Positions 4,352-47,415 of a DNA stretch of 64,000 bases are shown here, in pieces. Every line of letters begins with the position of its first letter. Position 1 is the first letter of the stretch. The stretch lies in the NCBI RefSeq assembly GCF_905221025.1, contig NZ_CAJNBL010000010.1, positions 1-64,000 of the forward strand, written 5' to 3'. A model generated the notes under the pieces. That model saw only the letters and a list, made by a program, of their open reading frames with translations, did not search any database and had not been told where the DNA came from. Made by a program: the position numbers and the translations under genes. This stretch comes from Candidatus Nitrotoga fabula (GTDB lineage Bacteria; Pseudomonadota; Gammaproteobacteria; Burkholderiales; Gallionellaceae).

Positions 4352-6672
4352 CCATCAAACCGCTCGACCCCTCCCTGCCCAAACTTTGGGACGACTTCAC
4401 GCTACGCCCCTATCTGGGCGAAATCCGTCGCCGCCACGGCATCGTCGAAACGCTTGCGCTGCCATCCATGCGCGACTTACCGCCGCTTCGAATTGAAACC
4501 ACTTTTGTATCACCGCTATTATCTGAAAAACAGGTATATCCGGACACCGACCCCAGCCAATGGCCCAAAGGGCAAAATCTACTGGATGCATTGGGAGCTT
4601 CCCAGCAATTGGTCGTTCTGGGCGACCCCGGTGGCGGCAAAACCACGCTGAGCAAGTGGCTGGCGTGGCGCCTGTCATCGGGGTTAACCTCGCCTCTTCC
4701 TCCTGTTCTTGAAGGGCGCATGCCGCTGCCTTGCATTTTGCGTGAAATGCCGCCAGCAGCGTTTACACCAGATATGACTTTACCCGATCTAGCGGGTCTG
4801 ATGGCAGACATATTGCTCGGCGTCAAAGCCGACGACAACCTCAAAGCCAGCCTACACGCGCGTATGCGTTCAGGACATTATGTCCTCATCCTGGATGGCG
4901 TAGATGAAATCCCCGTCGCACACAGAAAAATCGTTGCCGAATGGATCAAACAGGCAAGGTTTCAGAAAGCCTGCGTACTTGCCACCTCCCGGATCGTTGG
5001 CTATAAAGACTGCCCGGTTGACCGCAGCATTCCAGAACCCGATGATGACCTGAAAATCCAATCCTATCCGAGCTCCCATGGAGAGCTGCCAGTTTGGCTG
5101 GATGCAAAAACAGATATACCCGGGTTCGAGAAATGGGCGAAAATCCTTTACCTGATGCCATTTGACCAGCACCGCATCAACATTTTCGCTGAAAACTGGT
5201 ACCGGCAACGCTGCGGAACGGAACTGGAAGCAAAACAAAAAACCGAGGATCTGCTTGCCTCTTTAACGAAGTCGGAAGCAACCAGGCAATTGGCCCGCAC
5301 CCCCAACCTGCTCAGCCTGATGGCCATTGTGCATCGCGAACGCGCCCATCTGCCGGATGGCAAGGCACTGCTCTATGATGAGATTGCCAACGCCTACATC
5401 AATACCATCGACCAGCAACGCAATATCCTGCCTGGGGATGCCCTTGCCCCTTATGGATGGAAAGAACGCAAGACATGGCTGGCTTATATCGGCTTCCAGA
5501 TGCAGCAACTCCGAATGAATCCAGACATAACAGAGTTTCCGATAAGAGAAATAAGCGACGATGGCCTTCTGGCACAAAAAACAGACGTGGAAGCATGGCT
5601 GGCAGAAGCCATGGAAGATTCTGGAGTAAAAGCTCCAATTTCAGCTGCAAGAGAATTTCTCGCGTGGGTGGCGCGCCGTAGCGGCCTGTTATTACCTCGC
5701 GGAGAAGATCGCTATGCCTTTGTACACCTGAGCTTCCAGGAATATTTCTGCGCCTGCTACCTTGATTCCCGCATCGTAAGGCCCACCTTCTTTTCCGGGA
5801 ACACGACAAACCCAGACTCGGTTAACCCAAAAAATCTGCGTACCTGGAGTGGACTTTCCATCTGGCGCGAAACTTTTGTTTACCTTTTTGAACTTCTCTC
5901 AGCAGAGCGCGGCTCCGACTGGGTAGATGCCCTGGCAGATATCCTGTTTAGCCAAAGTTCTGATAAAAACCGGGATTTCGAGAAAAATCTTGGGACGCTT
6001 ACTGGACTCATTCTCGCGAATCAACACATCCGCAGCAACGGAAAATGGAAAGAACAGCTAAAACATATTGATTTTCGCGGCACTTCTGTCTCCGACCTCT
6101 CGCCTCTGGCAGGGCTAGGAAATCTGGAGACGCTTGATCTTGAGAGCACTTCTGTCTCCGACCTCTCGCCTCTGGCAGGGCTAGGAAATCTGGAGATGCT
6201 TAATCTTGAGAGCACTTCTGTCTCCGACCTCTCGCCTCTGGCAGGGCTAGAAAATCTGAAGACGCTTTTTCTTAGTAACACTTCTGTCTCCGACCTCTCG
6301 CCTCTGGCAGGGCTAGGAAATCTGGGGATGCTTGATCTTAGGAACACTTCTGTCTCCGACCTCTCGCCTCTGGCAGGGCTAGAAAATCTGAGGGTGCTTT
6401 TTCTTAGTAACCCTTCTGTCTCCGACCTCTCGCCTCTGGCAGGGCTAGAAAATCTGAGGGTGCTTTTTCTTAGTAACACTTCTGTCTCCGACCTCTCGCC
6501 TCTGGCAGGGCTAGGAAATCTGGGGATGCTTGATCTTAGGAGCACTTCTGTCTCCGACCTCTCGCCTCTGGCAGGGCTAGAAAATCTGAAGACGCTTTTT
6601 CTTAGTAACACTTCTGTCTCCGACCTCTCGCCTCTGGCAGGGCTAGGAAATCTCTCAATCCAGTATGAGTGA
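4348..6672 (+). CDS. NACHT NTPase with C-terminal leucine-rich repeats (NLR-like)
   Basis: A 774-residue STAND-class protein. Residues 1-88 form a short N-terminal region without a recognisable effector domain. The NACHT domain follows: Walker A GDPGGGKTT at 92-100, Walker B YVLILDGVDEIP at 178-189, a sensor-like VLATSR near 210, and further on the winged-helix-type VHLSFQEYF at about 458-466. From about residue 578 to 769 there are nine 22-residue leucine-rich repeats of the consensus TSVSDLSPLAGLxNLxxLxL; the protein then ends after SIQYE. This sensor-NTPase plus LRR order is that of NLR immune receptors; bacterial NACHT proteins are established anti-phage defence proteins. It begins inside the stop codon of the KAP gene. 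With no effector domain of its own, the KAP protein is the obvious candidate partner (inference). Convergent with hupB. Confidence 0.88.
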   Translation: MTIKPLDPSLPKLWDDFTLRPYLGEIRRRHGIVETLALPSMRDLPPLRIETTFVSPLLSEKQVYPDTDPSQWPKGQNLLDALGASQQLVVLGDPGGGKTTLSKWLAWRLSSGLTSPLPPVLEGRMPLPCILREMPPAAFTPDMTLPDLAGLMADILLGVKADDNLKASLHARMRSGHYVLILDGVDEIPVAHRKIVAEWIKQARFQKACVLATSRIVGYKDCPVDRSIPEPDDDLKIQSYPSSHGELPVWLDAKTDIPGFEKWAKILYLMPFDQHRINIFAENWYRQRCGTELEAKQKTEDLLASLTKSEATRQLARTPNLLSLMAIVHRERAHLPDGKALLYDEIANAYINTIDQQRNILPGDALAPYGWKERKTWLAYIGFQMQQLRMNPDITEFPIREISDDGLLAQKTDVEAWLAEAMEDSGVKAPISAAREFLAWVARRSGLLLPRGEDRYAFVHLSFQEYFCACYLDSRIVRPTFFSGNTTNPDSVNPKNLRTWSGLSIWRETFVYLFELLSAERGSDWVDALADILFSQSSDKNRDFEKNLGTLTGLILANQHIRSNGKWKEQLKHIDFRGTSVSDLSPLAGLGNLETLDLESTSVSDLSPLAGLGNLEMLNLESTSVSDLSPLAGLENLKTLFLSNTSVSDLSPLAGLGNLGMLDLRNTSVSDLSPLAGLENLRVLFLSNPSVSDLSPLAGLENLRVLFLSNTSVSDLSPLAGLGNLGMLDLRSTSVSDLSPLAGLENLKTLFLSNTSVSDLSPLAGLGNLSIQYE
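6081..6653 (+). repeat. Array of 66-bp tandem repeats encoding LRRs
   Basis: Nine units start at 6081, 6147, 6213, 6279, 6345, 6411, 6477, 6543 and 6609 with an exact 66-bp period; the last is truncated. A core of about 37 bp starting CACTTCTGTCTCCGACC and running through CTGGCAGGGCTA is practically identical in all copies; the only change I see is CCT for ACT at the start of unit six. The remaining part alternates between a GGAAATCTGG type (product GNLGMLDLR) and a GAAAATCTGA type (product ENLKTLFLSN or ENLRVLFLSN). Units 3 and 8 are the same and pairs 4-5 and 7-8 are near copies, which suggests block duplications. All units stay in the NACHT reading frame. Confidence 0.97.
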
Positions 6673-24987: not shown

Positions 24988-25203
24988 CGGCATCCCCCAA
25001 AAATATTTATAGCCTCATCCGCATATAAATGCCAGCACACTGCAACTGCCATCCAAGACCCGCATACACGCACAATTACCCCAGGCAGGTTCTTAGGTCT
25101 ACATAACCACCGCAACTAACATCAAAGAGAACCCAGACTTGCCCTGCATACTGCTATCGAAAACAGAAGATATAGTCCGGTTCCCACAAGCATCCAGTAT
25201 CCA

Positions 25204-25932
25204 TCAAACTGCTTTAGCCAGTTCTGTACGCAGGGCAGCAACTATAGAATCATAATGATTCGGATCCGTATTCCTGGATGCCTCATATATGGCAGTACCT
25301 ACCACAAAGGTATCGGCCCCGGCTCTGGCGACTTCTGCAATATTACCCAGATTCACATCACCATGCACTTCCAGCGCAATGTTGCGACCGCTATCATTAA
25401 TCTTTTTACGCGCCGTGCGCACTTTATCAAGCGTTGCAGGAATAAATTTTTGTCCAACAATCAGGCCGGTCTGTTTGGACATGATCAGAACAACATCCAG
25501 CTTGCCGATCACGTGGTCAAAATAACTGAATGGGGTAACGGGATTCATGGCCAGCCCGGCCTTGCAACCATTCTCATGTATTAAATCCACGACACGTTCG
25601 ATGTTGTCAAAAGATGGAAGATTATATTCATCCCGGTCCGCAGCTTCCGGATGAAAAGTGATGATGTTTGCACCTGCCTTGGCGTAAGCAGGAACCAGAT
25701 CAGTAAGAGACTGATCCACATTGTACCCGCTCGTCAAATGTACTTCGATTGGTGCTTGTGTGATGGGTCGAATGGCCGCACACGCCTTCAGACCATTCTT
25801 GTATGTAGGCACAAAATGCCTGTTCATCACTTCCAGGTGAATAATGTCTACCCCGGAATCCAGGACATCGACAATTTCCTCTCCAAGTTTGGCGAAATTG
25901 GCAGAAATAATACTTGCTGCGATCTTGTACAT
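25204..25932 (-). CDS. Ribulose-phosphate 3-epimerase-like protein with altered active site
   Basis: A 242-residue TIM-barrel protein clearly homologous to Rpe along its whole length (GANIITFHPEA, ENGCKAGLAMNPVTPFSY, KLDVVLIMS, GQKFIPATLDKV). However the metal/catalytic residues are changed: the usual HxDVMD reads HLEVMN (Asp to Glu34, Asp to Asn37), the LEVDGGV motif reads LEVHGDV (Asp to His190), and the NPGFGGQ loop reads KQTGLIVGQ. His32 and His65 are retained. It is therefore unlikely to be an ordinary Rpe; another sugar-phosphate epimerase/lyase or a non-catalytic role are possible. It is last in the long minus-strand block, 101 bp after the CopD-like gene. Confidence 0.75.
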   Translation of the reverse strand: MYKIAASIISANFAKLGEEIVDVLDSGVDIIHLEVMNRHFVPTYKNGLKACAAIRPITQAPIEVHLTSGYNVDQSLTDLVPAYAKAGANIITFHPEAADRDEYNLPSFDNIERVVDLIHENGCKAGLAMNPVTPFSYFDHVIGKLDVVLIMSKQTGLIVGQKFIPATLDKVRTARKKINDSGRNIALEVHGDVNLGNIAEVARAGADTFVVGTAIYEASRNTDPNHYDSIVAALRTELAKAV

Positions 25933-26033
25933 TAAAATACCTTTAAAATGAAGTTACACAGTTTTTTATTTTACCCGAAAATCCTGTGGCGCCAATTTCC
26001 GGCTGTCGCTCAAAAGAACGATATAGGGTATTT

Positions 26034-26492
26034 CTATATGCCAGCTGCTCCCCCCAGCACTGCTGTCGCAATGGTAGACAGACCAATAACCAGATTCAAG
26101 CCGACCAATCTGCGTATAGTGGCCAACATCGCCCCTGATCCTGGCCAATCCTGAGAAGCAACCTTTAACCTGAAGCGCCTGAAACTAATAAAAAACACAT
26201 ATATGAAGATTGACACCATCCCCATGCCAAACAGGGCCATCAAATGAACATGGCTGGAGACATGGGTCAATCCGCCATACAAATAAACCATACAGAAACC
26301 AGTGATCAACAAAATAATGACTGACAGCCACACCCAGTTAAAAAAACGTGCAAACACATTATCCCAGAGACGCAGCCGGTCCGGCGGTTGGAGTATTTCC
26401 CCAGCGGCAGCACGCAGTATCATATAGGCAAAGAACATCCCCCCCACCCAGATTACCACTGCCAGGACATGGAAAAATTTTAAAAAACTCAT
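26034..26492 (-). CDS. CopD-family integral membrane protein
   Basis: A 152-residue protein with four hydrophobic segments. The first, FHVLAVVIWVGGMFFAYMIL, carries the His and the WVGG signature common to CopD-type and related haem/copper membrane proteins; the others lie around residues 50-72, 84-104 and 130-150. ATG at 26492 overlaps the rnhB stop by one base (TGATG), so it is coupled to rnhB; a TTG one codon earlier is also possible. No periplasmic CopC-like partner is near. Function is unassigned beyond the family. Confidence 0.7.
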   Translation of the reverse strand: MSFLKFFHVLAVVIWVGGMFFAYMILRAAAGEILQPPDRLRLWDNVFARFFNWVWLSVIILLITGFCMVYLYGGLTHVSSHVHLMALFGMGMVSIFIYVFFISFRRFRLKVASQDWPGSGAMLATIRRLVGLNLVIGLSTIATAVLGGAAGI

Positions 26493-27079
26493 CAATCTTT
26501 CATTCCCTGTTGCAGGATTTCTCTTACCGGCCTGAAGCTGTTCCTGTGTTCATGGGTTGCTCCATATTTTTTTAATGCTGCCAAATGAATCTTAGTAGCA
26601 TACCCTTTATGAGCGGCGAACCCGTACTGTGGAAATGTTTCATGCAGCAACAGCATCGCAGCATCGCGCGCAGTCTTAGCCAAAATAGAAGCTGCAGAAA
26701 TCGAAGCGACACTACTATCCCCCTGCACAATCGCACGGCTTGGTATGCCGGTATCCGGGCAATGCAAACCATCCACAAGAACTTCTTGCGGGCGGAGCTG
26801 CAATTTTTCTACAGCTCGGCGCATGGCCAACAGGCTGGCATGAAAAATATTTACTGTATCAATCTCCTGAACAGAAGCCTCCGCTATCGCCCAGTCTATA
26901 GCATGTTGTTTGATTTCCAGAGCCAGATGGTTACGTTGCTTTTCGCTGAGTTTTTTTGAATCGTCCAGTCCCAATATTGGGTGGGAATCATCCAGAATAA
27001 CCGCTGCGGCAAAGACGGGGCCTGCCAGCGGACCACGACCAGATTCATCCACACCGCAGACCAGTAGCGACGGCTTCAT
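26492..27079 (-). CDS. rnhB: Ribonuclease HII
   Basis: Removes RNA from RNA-DNA hybrids, including single embedded ribonucleotides. [14 protein letters not shown] near the N-terminus holds the catalytic Asp11-Glu12; further motifs are [17 protein letters not shown] and [17 protein letters not shown]. 195 residues. It begins inside the lpxB stop (ATGA), the standard lpxB-rnhB arrangement. Confidence 0.96.
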
Positions 27080-44125: not shown

Positions 44126-44941
44126 ATGGCCGTAAATCACTACGAAAATTTCCCTGTTGCCTCTATTCTCCTGCCCAAACCTATCAGGCATGCGGTTGAA
44201 ACCATTTATCACTTTGCCCGCCAGGCAGACGACTTCGCTGACGAGGGCAATTGGTCAAATTTGGAACGATTCAGTAAGCTTGACCATTTCCGCACTGAGC
44301 TTTTGTGCATTGCTGCAAATGAGGAACCACAAACCCCCTTGTTCCGCGAACTGGCGTTCATCATCGAAAAACATCAGCTTCCCCTGCAATTATTTCATGA
44401 CCTGCTTGATGCCTTTGCGCAAGATGTGGTCAAAAAGCGCTACGCGAATTTCGACGAAATCCTGAATTATTGTCGCCGTTCCGCCAATCCGGTCGGCAGA
44501 TTACTGTTACATCTGTATCAGGAAGCCACTCCTGTAAACCTGGCCTATTCCGATGCCATATGCTCCAGTCTGCAACTCATCAATTTTTGGCAGGATATTA
44601 TGAAAGACTACTCCATCAACCGAATCTATTTGCCACAGGACGAAATGGCGGATTTCGGGGTAACAGAAATGCATATTGCACAGTGCCGTGCAGACCAGGA
44701 ATGGCGTAATCTCATGCAATTTCAAAGTCTCCGCGCACGCAACATGCTGCAAAGCGGAACTCCGCTAGGCAGCATACTCACCGGTCGCATCGGCATGGAA
44801 ATGAGACTGATCATTGCAGGCGGCAATCGCATTCTGGACAAGCTGGAAACCGTTAAATTCGATATGTTTCACCACCGCCCTGTATTACGTCCTTTGGACT
44901 GGATTATCATGCTTGGTAAATCTGCGCCATTTGGTTTTTGA
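44126..44941 (+). CDS. hpnC: Squalene synthase HpnC (hydroxysqualene synthase)
   Basis: In the three-gene bacterial route to squalene, HpnC converts presqualene diphosphate to hydroxysqualene. The 271-residue trans-isoprenyl-diphosphate-synthase fold protein has the aspartate-rich motif ARQADDFADEG and the second, degenerate one SLQLINFWQDIMKD. ENFPVASILLP at the N-terminus is typical. No good Shine-Dalgarno is visible. First gene of the hpnCDE set; hpnD follows after 36 bp. Confidence 0.93.
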   Translation: MAVNHYENFPVASILLPKPIRHAVETIYHFARQADDFADEGNWSNLERFSKLDHFRTELLCIAANEEPQTPLFRELAFIIEKHQLPLQLFHDLLDAFAQDVVKKRYANFDEILNYCRRSANPVGRLLLHLYQEATPVNLAYSDAICSSLQLINFWQDIMKDYSINRIYLPQDEMADFGVTEMHIAQCRADQEWRNLMQFQSLRARNMLQSGTPLGSILTGRIGMEMRLIIAGGNRILDKLETVKFDMFHHRPVLRPLDWIIMLGKSAPFGF

Positions 44942-44977
44942 AGGAACAAACCAGCCAGCTACTCAGAATACGTTAAT

Positions 44978-45811
44978 ATGACACCCGATCAATACTGCAA
45001 AGACAAGGCGGCTCAAAGCGGTTCAAGTTTCTATTACAGCTTTATGTTCCTCCCCCCGGACAAACGTCGTGCAATCACTGCACTATATGCTTTTTGCCGG
45101 GAAGTAGATGATGTGGTAGACGAAAATTTGAATGCAAACGTGGCACGTGCCTCACTGGCCTGGTGGCATACCGAGGTAATTGCCATTTACAACGGGAGCC
45201 CCCAGCATCCGGTTACTCGTGCGTTGGCCCCGGTAGTCAGGCAATACCACCTGCCACAGGAACATTTTCATGAAATCATCAAGGGCATGGAAATGGATTT
45301 GCTCCCACATCAATATGCAGATTTCCCATCCCTGAAGCAGTATTGCTATCGCGTGGCATCCATAGTAGGAATACTCGCCGCCAAAATATTCGGCTATACC
45401 AACCCTGACACCCTCAAATATGCACAGGATCTGGGCCTTGCATTCCAGCTTACCAATATCATCCGCGACGTTGGAGAAGACGCCCAACGCGGACGCATCT
45501 ATCTCCCTATGGAAGAATTAAAACTTTTTGGTATAACCAGCAATGAAATTCTTCACAGGCTGGACAGTGAAAATTTTCAAAAACTCATCCAATTCCAGAT
45601 TGATCGCGCACAACATTACTATTACCAGGCATTTGCACAGCTTCCCGCTGCAGATCGCAAGGCGCAGCGCACCGGTCTTATAATGGCAGCAATTTATCAG
45701 GCAACCTTAAAAAAAATCACTGCCAGCGGATGCCCTGTACTTACTAAGCGCGTCTCACTTACGCCTCTCCGCAAGCTTTGGATCGCGTGGAAAACCTGGA
45801 TGCAGAACTAA
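44978..45811 (+). CDS. hpnD: Presqualene diphosphate synthase HpnD
   Basis: Condenses two farnesyl diphosphates to presqualene diphosphate. FYYSFMFLPPDKRRAITALY, CREVDDVVDE and LGLAFQLTNIIRDVGEDAQR followed by GRIYLP carry both Asp-rich motifs in good order. 277 residues. A 257-bp gap follows before hpnE. Confidence 0.94.
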   Translation: MTPDQYCKDKAAQSGSSFYYSFMFLPPDKRRAITALYAFCREVDDVVDENLNANVARASLAWWHTEVIAIYNGSPQHPVTRALAPVVRQYHLPQEHFHEIIKGMEMDLLPHQYADFPSLKQYCYRVASIVGILAAKIFGYTNPDTLKYAQDLGLAFQLTNIIRDVGEDAQRGRIYLPMEELKLFGITSNEILHRLDSENFQKLIQFQIDRAQHYYYQAFAQLPAADRKAQRTGLIMAAIYQATLKKITASGCPVLTKRVSLTPLRKLWIAWKTWMQN

Positions 45812-46068
45812 TTGTCTATGACTTGACCGTGAATGTTACCAGCTAAATAACTCGAACCAGGTAAACATCATTCTGCAAAATTCATGGCTTCAAATTTTAC
45901 CAGCCATACCTGCATGTACGATTTACACACCAATCCGGCACGGCAGAATTTTTGCCTGAAGGCAATACCTAACCTTATCTGGATGCAACGCCTGAATCAT
46001 CAGGAAAAACGAATAAGACCAAGGCACTGTAGCCCATTTTGACCCAGTTTAAACAGCTAACGCAAACC

Positions 46069-47415
46069 ATGAATCCAGACCATGACCGACAAAAGAAATA
46101 TCATGTCGCCATTATCGGTGGCGGATACGCCGGTATGGCGGCAGCGGTAACCCTGAGTACGGCAGGAGTACCCGTTACGGTATTTGAGACTGCCAGAACG
46201 CTCGGTGGTCGTGCCCGTGGCGTTTGGCATAAAAATACACAACTCGATAACGGCCAACATATTCTGCTGGGCAGCTATCACCATACTTTACAATTAATAG
46301 AACAGGTCGGCGGCAATATTGAACAGGACTTCCTGCGGTTGCCATTGCAATTGAAACTGCACAATAGATTCGAATTGAAAGCATGGCGTCTGCCCGCTCC
46401 CCTGCATCTTCTTGCCGGGCTTCTCGGCGCAACCGGGGTATCTTTTAACCATCGCCTGTCAGCTGCAAAATTCATGTTATCGCTGAAACGCAGCAAATTC
46501 ACCCTAGACTACGATGTCAGTGTATCGGAACTATTGCACTTCCATAACCAAAATATAAACCTGGCCAGATTTTTATGGGAACCGATCTGCATTGCAGCCC
46601 TCAACACACCAAGCCATATTGCCTCTGCAAAAGTGCTGCTGCATGTGTTGCGCGACAGTCTGGGCGGTTCGCGTAGCGATAGCGATATCCTACTGCCTCG
46701 CATCAATTTTTCTGCGCTATTTCCAGAACGAGCCGCCGAATACATCAAACATCATGGTGGAAAGATTCTCACTGCCTGCAAGGTAGATGCCATTGTTCCG
46801 CATGGCAATGAAATCGAACTCATCATTCATTCTTCGACAGCAAATCATTCCTCGCATCCGAGGATATTCAGCCATGTCATATGTGCAGCATCACCAGTGA
46901 ACGCCACGCGACTGTTAAAATCTGAACCTCAGATTGCATGCATTGCAGAGCAAATTGCTGCAATGCAACACCAGCCCATTTATACAATTTATCTGCAATA
47001 TCCTGAAAAAATTCACTTGCCCTGCCCAATGCTTGGTCTGGACAGCTGTATTGCTCAATGGCTGTTTGATCAGGGGCAGATCTCCGGACAAAATGGGCTG
47101 ATCGCTGCGGTAATCAGCGCACAAGGAAAACACCAAAAATTAACGCATGATCAGCTTGCGAAAGAGATCGTCCGCGAAATATACGAGCAATTGAATATAG
47201 CGGAAGTCCCAATATGGCAGAAAGTGATCGCAGAAAAACGAGCCACCTTCTCCTGCGTAACGAACCTGTTCCGCCCCATTCATACCACGCCTCTTGCCAA
47301 CGTACTATTGGCTGGGGACTACACAGCTGGCGACTACCCTGCCACTCTGGAAGGAGCCGTAATAAGCGGGATACGCTGCGCGGAAAAAATTACGTCCGAA
47401 ATCGGGTTCTCCTGA
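46069..47415 (+). CDS. hpnE: Hydroxysqualene dehydroxylase HpnE
   Basis: FAD-dependent amine-oxidase-fold enzyme that reduces hydroxysqualene to squalene. VAIIGGGYAGMAAAVTLS near the N-terminus is the dinucleotide-binding fold, followed by FETARTLGGRARG; the C-terminal LLAGDYTAGDYPATLEGAV is the FAD-contacting motif. ATG at 46069 gives 448 residues; an in-frame TTG at 46039 is possible. No squalene-hopene cyclase gene follows in the window. Confidence 0.92.
   Translation: MNPDHDRQKKYHVAIIGGGYAGMAAAVTLSTAGVPVTVFETARTLGGRARGVWHKNTQLDNGQHILLGSYHHTLQLIEQVGGNIEQDFLRLPLQLKLHNRFELKAWRLPAPLHLLAGLLGATGVSFNHRLSAAKFMLSLKRSKFTLDYDVSVSELLHFHNQNINLARFLWEPICIAALNTPSHIASAKVLLHVLRDSLGGSRSDSDILLPRINFSALFPERAAEYIKHHGGKILTACKVDAIVPHGNEIELIIHSSTANHSSHPRIFSHVICAASPVNATRLLKSEPQIACIAEQIAAMQHQPIYTIYLQYPEKIHLPCPMLGLDSCIAQWLFDQGQISGQNGLIAAVISAQGKHQKLTHDQLAKEIVREIYEQLNIAEVPIWQKVIAEKRATFSCVTNLFRPIHTTPLANVLLAGDYTAGDYPATLEGAVISGIRCAEKITSEIGFS

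What the first reader, a model, noticed from the sequence alone, without database searches (positions are those of the whole stretch)
25204..25932. Ribulose-phosphate-epimerase homologue with replaced catalytic and metal residues
The protein aligns with Rpe end to end, yet HxDVMD is HLEVMN, LEVDGGV is LEVHGDV, and the NPGFGGQ loop is KQTGLIVGQ. Both catalytic Asp are gone while two His ligands remain. Conservation of the fold and of new residues hints at a changed reaction or a regulatory role rather than decay.
Basis: partly seen in the sequence, partly recalled or inferred. Interest (0 to 1): 0.55.

Follow-up and report, generated by a model that had tools for sequence, protein, structure and literature searches.

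The report
Rebuilt sugar-phosphate epimerase copy in Nitrotoga
Nitrotoga bacteria carry, beside their normal Calvin-cycle epimerase, a second copy whose active site has been rebuilt and then kept under strong selection, so it has probably taken on a new and still unknown job.

Summary
It is a full-length Rpe-fold protein in Candidatus Nitrotoga. Both catalytic, metal-binding Asp are replaced (Glu34, His190) and both His ligands kept (His32, His65). The residue changes are fixed in 15 of 15 paralogues and seen in none of 104 canonical sequences compared. A normal rpe is present in the same genome. The variant is one clade, joined to Nitrotoga's own rpe. It is in 15 of 19 genus genomes; its signature pattern marks no such gene in 131 other Gallionellaceae. 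It is not decaying: dN/dS is about 0.06, and the altered active-site face is more conserved than the rest. It sits beside smpB in 15 of 15 genomes and keeps the rpe promoter element, so the duplication probably copied promoter and gene together. Best reading: a neofunctionalised metal-dependent TIM-barrel enzyme, not a standard ribulose-5-phosphate 3-epimerase. Reaction unknown. Chief rival: an inactive partner of Rpe.

The parts
25204..25932 (-). Rpe-like paralogue, 242 aa (P0001), (beta/alpha)8 barrel
   Evidence: ORF; Pfam PF00834; AlphaFold2 model pLDDT 88.8 and VIA Z 33.8 to Rpe 7sbj
25968..25981 (-). Conserved -10-type promoter element TTTTCGGGTAAAAT, shared with canonical rpe; promoter-like hexamers span 25995-25968 (TTGGCG, 16 nt, TAAAAT)
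   Evidence: Upstream alignments; genome-wide pattern; consensus scan (1 promoter-like site found in 25000-26600, 3.2 expected in shuffles, so the scan alone proves nothing)
25822..25839 (-). Residues 32-37 HLEVMN (H32 kept; catalytic/metal Asp replaced by E34; D to N37), end of strand 2
   Evidence: Alignment of 15 paralogues and 29 canonical; 27-bp pattern at 25813-25839 matched in 1 of 398 Pseudomonadota genomes, this one
25714..25740 (-). Residues 65-73: H65 kept, M67 replaced by T67, 5-residue insert GYNVD (69-73) after strand 3
25609..25638 (-). Residues 99-108: 10-residue insert DRDEYNLPSF after strand 4
25450..25479 (-). Residues 152-161 SKQTGLIVGQ: rebuilt strand-6 loop (SVNPGF-GGQ in Rpe)
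   Evidence: mean pLDDT 68 in residues 151-160
25357..25365 (-). Residues 190-192 HGD: catalytic/metal Asp replaced by H190, Gly of the DGG motif by D192

Best explanation
The gene arose when rpe was duplicated, promoter included, in the ancestor of the main Nitrotoga clade, and the copy was then neofunctionalised. Scaffold and position of the metal site are kept, but the site is predicted to become His32-Glu34-His65-His190 in place of His2-Asp2. Both Asp acid/base catalysts are gone, one of three shielding Met is Thr, the Gly192 position of the phosphate end is now Asp, and two inserted loops plus a rebuilt strand-6 lid cover the barrel mouth. I infer a metal-dependent enzyme acting on a different sugar- or polyol-like substrate, whose phosphate end is not bound as in ribulose-5-phosphate. 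Proton transfer would be by Glu34/His190, or the reaction would be another one (isomerisation, retro-aldol, decarboxylation). It is probably expressed along with rpe. Shown by calls: the sequence replacements, their fixation, selection, clade, promoter element and fold prediction. Inferred: metal binding, substrate change, catalysis, co-expression.
For: Replacements fixed in 15 of 15 paralogues and absent in 29 of 29 canonical sequences of relatives and 75 of 75 from GTDB contigs (some of these are the same organisms as among the relatives). dN/dS median 0.063 in the paralogue against 0.024 in canonical rpe. The active-site face is more conserved than the rest within the paralogue (65/87 against 95/155 invariant, p 0.035; pN/pS 0.087 against 0.129), unlike an abandoned active site. 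26 of 35 fixed differences lie on that face (87 of 242 residues, p 7e-7). All four metal-ligand positions still carry ligand-capable residues. Canonical rpe, RuBisCO and a PRK match in the same genome free the copy from the housekeeping role. rpe promoter element kept in 15 of 15. Independent BamA tree: the 14 carriers with a BamA hit are one clade, 100/100.
Against: No activity, metal, substrate or expression data. Position next to smpB gives no pathway hint, and upstream genes differ between genomes. Glu and His can act as acid/base, so Rpe activity is not excluded, and the protein scores only slightly below the Rpe equivalog cut-off. Shared promoter element and Rpe-like surface also fit a regulatory subunit. 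9 of 35 fixed differences lie off the face, four of them in helix 3. dN/dS is 2.6 times that of canonical rpe, so constraint is weaker. The face/rest difference in conservation is modest, and canonical rpe shows the same trend.
Confidence: 0.55

Rival explanations
1. A catalytically dead or weak paralogue that assembles with canonical Rpe (Rpe forms dimers or hexamers, passages) or another Calvin-cycle enzyme and regulates it: a pseudoenzyme partner, co-expressed from the duplicated rpe promoter.
For: Both catalytic Asp lost in 15 of 15; same promoter element as rpe; scaffold conserved, Z 33.8 to Rpe 7sbj; pseudoenzymes that regulate active cousins are known in most enzyme families (start of the abstract of PMC11266112 in the listing).
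Against: The active-site face, including new residues and inserts, is more conserved than the rest; ligand-capable residues remain at all four metal positions; no interface test could be run.
Confidence: 0.25
2. A divergent isozyme that still interconverts pentose 5-phosphates (or a close ketose phosphate), with Glu34 and His190 as the new acid/base pair.
For: Overall score close to the Rpe equivalog cut-off (198.6 against 212.6 bits); Glu and His are common general acids/bases (general knowledge).
Against: Both Asp are described as fundamental to Rpe catalysis (passages of PMC9978339); Gly192 to Asp; lid loop and two more loops rebuilt; canonical rpe present in the same genome.
Confidence: 0.15
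3. A decaying or neutral copy.
For: Nitrotoga does leave decaying rpe remnants: G009 C50 and G003 C5 carry broken fragments of the canonical gene.
Against: No stop inside the match in 15 of 15; dN/dS median 0.063 and at most 0.168 over the 82 of 105 pairs that were not saturated; replacements identical in all; the real remnants look quite different.
Confidence: 0.02

Closest known systems
Ribulose-phosphate 3-epimerase (Rpe/CbbE, EC 5.1.3.1; PF00834, TIGR01163)
   Same: Whole fold, two metal His, two of three Met, most of the barrel scaffold; parent gene and promoter element
   Different: Asp/Asp replaced by Glu/His, Met67 to Thr, rebuilt strand-6 lid, inserts after strands 3 and 4, Gly192 to Asp; below the TIGR01163 cut-off
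D-allulose-6-phosphate 3-epimerase (AlsE, NF007266, PDB 3ct7)
   Same: Same superfamily and fold (Z 28.7); shows that Rpe relatives change substrate
   Different: 124.1 bits against a cut-off of 271
3-hexulose-6-phosphate synthase / 3-keto-L-gulonate-6-phosphate decarboxylase
   Same: Related barrels (Z about 20-22) acting on related sugar phosphates; metal dependence recalled
   Different: For the synthase models, sequence match only within residues 176-222 and far below cut-offs (20.7 against 500 and 19.9 against 200 bits)

Membership tests
Ribulose-phosphate 3-epimerase | Ribul_P_3_epim domain over full length | tested here: met
   PF00834, 190 bits (cut-off 21.1), model 1-198 of 198
Ribulose-phosphate 3-epimerase | Curated equivalog score (TIGR01163) | tested here: not met
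   198.6 bits against cut-off 212.6
Ribulose-phosphate 3-epimerase | (beta/alpha)8 barrel of Rpe type | tested here: met
   Model pLDDT 88.8; Z 33.8, rmsd 1.2 over 216 residues to 7sbj
Ribulose-phosphate 3-epimerase | Metal ligands His, Asp, His, Asp | tested here: not met
   His32, Glu34, His65, His190 in 15 of 15
Ribulose-phosphate 3-epimerase | Two catalytic Asp | tested here: not met
   Asp to Glu34 and Asp to His190 in 15 of 15; Asp in 104 of 104 canonical sequences (17 + 12 + 75)
Ribulose-phosphate 3-epimerase | Three Met shielding the enediolate | tested here: not met
   Met36 and Met151 kept, third is Thr67 in 15 of 15
Ribulose-phosphate 3-epimerase | NPGFGGQ lid and DGG phosphate site | tested here: not met
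   KQTGLIxGQ and HGD in 15 of 15; that these motifs bind phosphate is recalled
Ribulose-phosphate 3-epimerase | Epimerase activity on ribulose-5-phosphate | not testable with these tools
   needs an assay
D-allulose-6-phosphate 3-epimerase | Curated equivalog score | tested here: not met
   124.1 against 271 bits
3-hexulose-6-phosphate synthase | Curated score | tested here: not met
   TIGR03128 19.9 against 200 bits; NF041755 20.7 against 500 bits
Rpe-interacting pseudoenzyme | Binds and modulates canonical Rpe | not testable with these tools
   no complex prediction or assay available

The most novel reading that the evidence does not exclude
Inside one genus, a central Calvin-cycle epimerase was converted into a metalloenzyme of another reaction type: an rpe copy with a three-His/one-Glu metal centre and new lid that no longer does the Asp/Asp proton relay, works beside Rpe from the same promoter, and serves nitrite-oxidising autotrophy. 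One example would be repair or use of a RuBisCO side product, such as a pentulose bisphosphate, that ordinary Rpe cannot hold.
Probability: 0.2. Interest if true: 0.65.

Novelty: new variant of a known kind. Interest (0 to 1): 0.42.

Why it matters
It is a recent, genus-level neofunctionalisation of a central enzyme whose active site was invariant in all 104 canonical sequences compared at the ligand positions: parent and daughter sit in the same genomes with the same promoter element, the active site is replaced as a unit, and the result is fixed in a group of nitrite oxidisers. If it is a new activity, it offers a compact test of how an epimerase barrel changes reaction or substrate; if it is a partner, it would be a genus-specific control of the Calvin cycle. 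It also warns that by domain search alone such a gene reads simply as 'ribulose-phosphate 3-epimerase'.

Tried and rejected
Decay: rejected. Horizontal acquisition: disfavoured, since paralogue and Nitrotoga rpe together form one side of a branch at 100/98* and share the promoter element. Exact order of events: not resolved. The tree puts the paralogue inside Nitrotoga rpe, after the G004/G016 split (96/89*), but holding the 17 canonical sequences together is not rejected (AU p 0.29), so duplication before that split followed by loss remains possible.

Operon or neighbourhood clue: none. It stands convergent to smpB in 15 of 15 genomes (window plus the 14 loci). Upstream are CopD-like/rnhB/lpx genes in 3 (G000, G009, G002) and other genes in 11; in G014 only 306 bases lie upstream on the contig.

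Link to nitrite oxidoreductase: NxrA-like protein in 12 of 15 carriers (not in G002, G013, G018, the last rated 100% complete) and 0 of 4 non-carriers of the database genus, but also in G022 (68% identity), which lacks the paralogue. So the link is of lineage, not shown to be of function. NxrA is my label, from a 1169-aa molybdopterin protein and recalled knowledge. My checkpoint note says 11 of 15; the count is 12. That note and the one also call the paralogue one of 'two best' promoter matches; it ties with two others at one mismatch.

MSKQTG-coding DNA pattern in the family: 23 of 150 genomes matched, 15 being the paralogue; of the other eight, two encode MSKQTG but in unrelated genes (G022 and G073, loci L196, L197), the rest encode other residues or a stop. 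This exact pattern would miss a variant without the motif; a protein search of 18 family genomes outside the genus gave one Rpe match each. Viral contigs: 6 pattern hits, none a relative. Pattern for HxEVM(N/D)xH(F/Y) in 398 Pseudomonadota genomes: only this genome, with the same limit. A second Pfam hit, QRPTase_C over residues 167-218, is just above its cut-off (24.1 against 23.1 bits); I take it as shared barrel architecture. Literature: no paper in the held library has both 'Nitrotoga' and 'epimerase'; searches for altered Rpe paralogues or Rpe mutants gave nothing on point, and served for background.

Full report
What is there. The stretch 25204-25932 encodes a 242-aa protein on the minus strand. 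It is an Rpe homologue end to end: PF00834 190 bits, TIGR01163 198.6 bits, just below that model's cut-off of 212.6, and phmmer E 5.6e-57 to the Neisseria Rpe 5umf. An AlphaFold2 model (pLDDT 88.8, pTM 0.89; 40 aligned sequences) superposes on Rpe structures with Z up to 33.8 and rmsd 1.2 over 216 residues. A weak second Pfam match, QRPTase_C, is just above its cut-off (24.1 against 23.1 bits).

Whose genome. The window lies in a 2.30 Mb, 44-contig genome. The closest named contigs are Candidatus Nitrotoga, known nitrite oxidisers. The genome has a second PF00834 gene on contig 21, scoring 301 bits, which lies in a rpe-gph-trpE-like order (the gene names gph and trpE are my reading of the translations) and has the canonical active-site residues. 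RuBisCO large chain is found in 20 of 20 genomes tested and a PRK match in 19 of 20, this one included in both. So a normal Rpe is available for the Calvin cycle.

The altered residues. According to PMC9978339 (passages seen), Rpe binds its metal with two His and two Asp (His72, Asp74, His105, Asp216 in Chlamydomonas), the two Asp are the acid/base catalysts, and three Met shield the intermediate. By motif, the window protein has His32, Glu34, His65, His190 at the four ligand positions and Met36, Thr67, Met151 at the Met positions. In addition the NPGFGGQ lid is KQTGLIVGQ, DGG is HGD, five residues (GYNVD) are inserted after strand 3, and ten (DRDEYNLPSF) after strand 4. E34, N37, T67, K153-Q154-T155, L157, H190 and D192 are identical in 15 of 15 paralogues; the corresponding canonical residues (D, D, M, V-N-P, F, D, G) are found in all of 17 Nitrotoga canonical, 12 relatives' and 75 GTDB sequences, save one Tyr for Phe at position 157. 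Some GTDB sequences come from the same organisms as the relatives, so the 104 are not all independent. The inserts were compared with the 29 relatives' sequences and are absent from all of them; I did not count them in the 75.

Not decay. Within 15 genomes, pairwise dN/dS (Nei-Gojobori) has a median of 0.063 (maximum 0.168), against 0.024 in the canonical gene; dS was saturated in 23 of 105 paralogue pairs and 2 of 105 canonical pairs, which were left out of the ratios. 26 of the 35 fixed differences lie on the catalytic face (strand C-termini plus beta-alpha loops of the model, 87 of 242 residues; hypergeometric p 7e-7); for substitutions alone, leaving out the inserted stretches, 14 of 22 (p 0.001; the stretches left out were set by eye to within one residue). 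Within the paralogue clade that face is more conserved than the rest (65/87 against 95/155 invariant, Fisher p 0.035; pN/pS 0.087 against 0.129). An unused active site would be expected to drift; this one does not. Against this, the difference is modest, canonical Rpe shows the same trend (67/72 against 127/154), and the paralogue as a whole is less constrained than the parent.

Origin and range. The paralogue occurs in 15 of 19 genomes of the database genus (this one included). Its MSKQTG signature pattern marks no such gene in the other 131 of 150 Gallionellaceae genomes sampled: eight gave hits, all in other genes or coding other residues. The four genus members without it (G004, G010, G011, G016) are 71-97% complete, so absence from some may be missing sequence. 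A BamA tree of 23 genomes puts the 14 carriers that have a BamA hit in one clade, 100/100. The Rpe tree puts all 15 paralogues in one clade (100/100) that joins the 17 Nitrotoga canonical sequences (100/98*); the order inside that group is not settled (AU p 0.29). A pattern for HxEVM(N/D)xH(F/Y) occurs in 1 of 398 genomes across the phylum, this one.

Promoter kept. Upstream of the paralogue, 15 of 15 genomes keep TTTCGGGTAGAAT or nearly so (13 exact; G000 has TTTCGGGTAAAAT, G015 one extra G). The canonical rpe carries GTTTCGGGTAGAAT at a similar distance in 15 of 17 Nitrotoga genomes and GTTTCAGGTAGAAT in the other two. Of 11 further canonical rpe from the family that were among the fetched loci, 7 have TTTCGGGTAGAAT exactly (G010, G011, G022, G023, G025, G028, G034; not G019, G024, G030, G036); none of the 75 GTDB loci outside Nitrotoga has it. 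In this genome the exact 14-mer GTTTCGGGTARAAT occurs once, at canonical rpe; with one mismatch three times, one being the paralogue; with up to two mismatches 61 places in all, against 25 for a reversed control. The element fits a -10 box. The simplest account is that the duplication carried the rpe promoter along and selection kept it, which suggests joint expression; expression itself is not shown.

Neighbourhood. The gene is convergent to smpB in 15 of 15 genomes. Upstream genes differ: CopD-like, rnhB and lpxB in G000, G009 and G002, other genes in 11, unknown in G014. It is probably its own transcription unit; no pathway hint comes from context.

Mechanism. What follows is inference. With ligand-capable residues at all four positions and a conserved, rebuilt pocket, a metal-dependent activity is more likely than a dead site. 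Loss of both Asp, of one shielding Met and of Gly192, together with new loops, argues for a changed substrate or reaction. Glu34 and His190 could still shuttle protons, so an epimerase of another ketose is within range. A pseudoenzyme partner of Rpe is the main rival, favoured by the shared promoter element. Sequence alone cannot separate them.

Verdict. This is a genus-specific, neofunctionalised Rpe paralogue: a new variant of a known kind. In two Nitrotoga genome papers the word 'epimerase' does not occur in the main text (PMC6050957, PMC9239080; word search and passages), and no held paper combines 'Nitrotoga' and 'epimerase'.

Noticed in passing
L127 (G009 C50) near 4900-5106 and L128 (G003 C5) near 4667-4840: Broken remnants of the canonical rpe (not of the paralogue): one keeps the start and, the end with the middle missing; the other has a stop after 43 residues. 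They suggest that rpe was duplicated more than once in Nitrotoga and that other copies decayed.
   Followed up: partly
G022 (other Gallionellaceae genus), C120 and C76: NxrA-like proteins 68% identical to the Nitrotoga one in a genome outside the genus and without the rpe paralogue: a possible further nitrite oxidiser.
   Followed up: no
G010, G011 (placed in the same genus by the database), L148, L149: Their rpe belongs with other Gallionellaceae, and they show neither NxrA nor the paralogue; G010 also branches outside the carrier clade in BamA (G011 had no BamA hit). Both are incomplete; genus placement or bins look doubtful.
   Followed up: partly
Canonical rpe upstream regions, e.g. L129 and L148-L151: GTTTCGGGTAGAAT is a conserved promoter-like element of rpe in much of the Gallionellaceae, conserved beyond a plain -10 hexamer.
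   Followed up: partly
window 44126-47415: Three ORFs in a row that look like a squalene-synthesis set (two short prenyl-synthase-like proteins and an FAD protein); label recalled from the translations, not searched.
   Followed up: no
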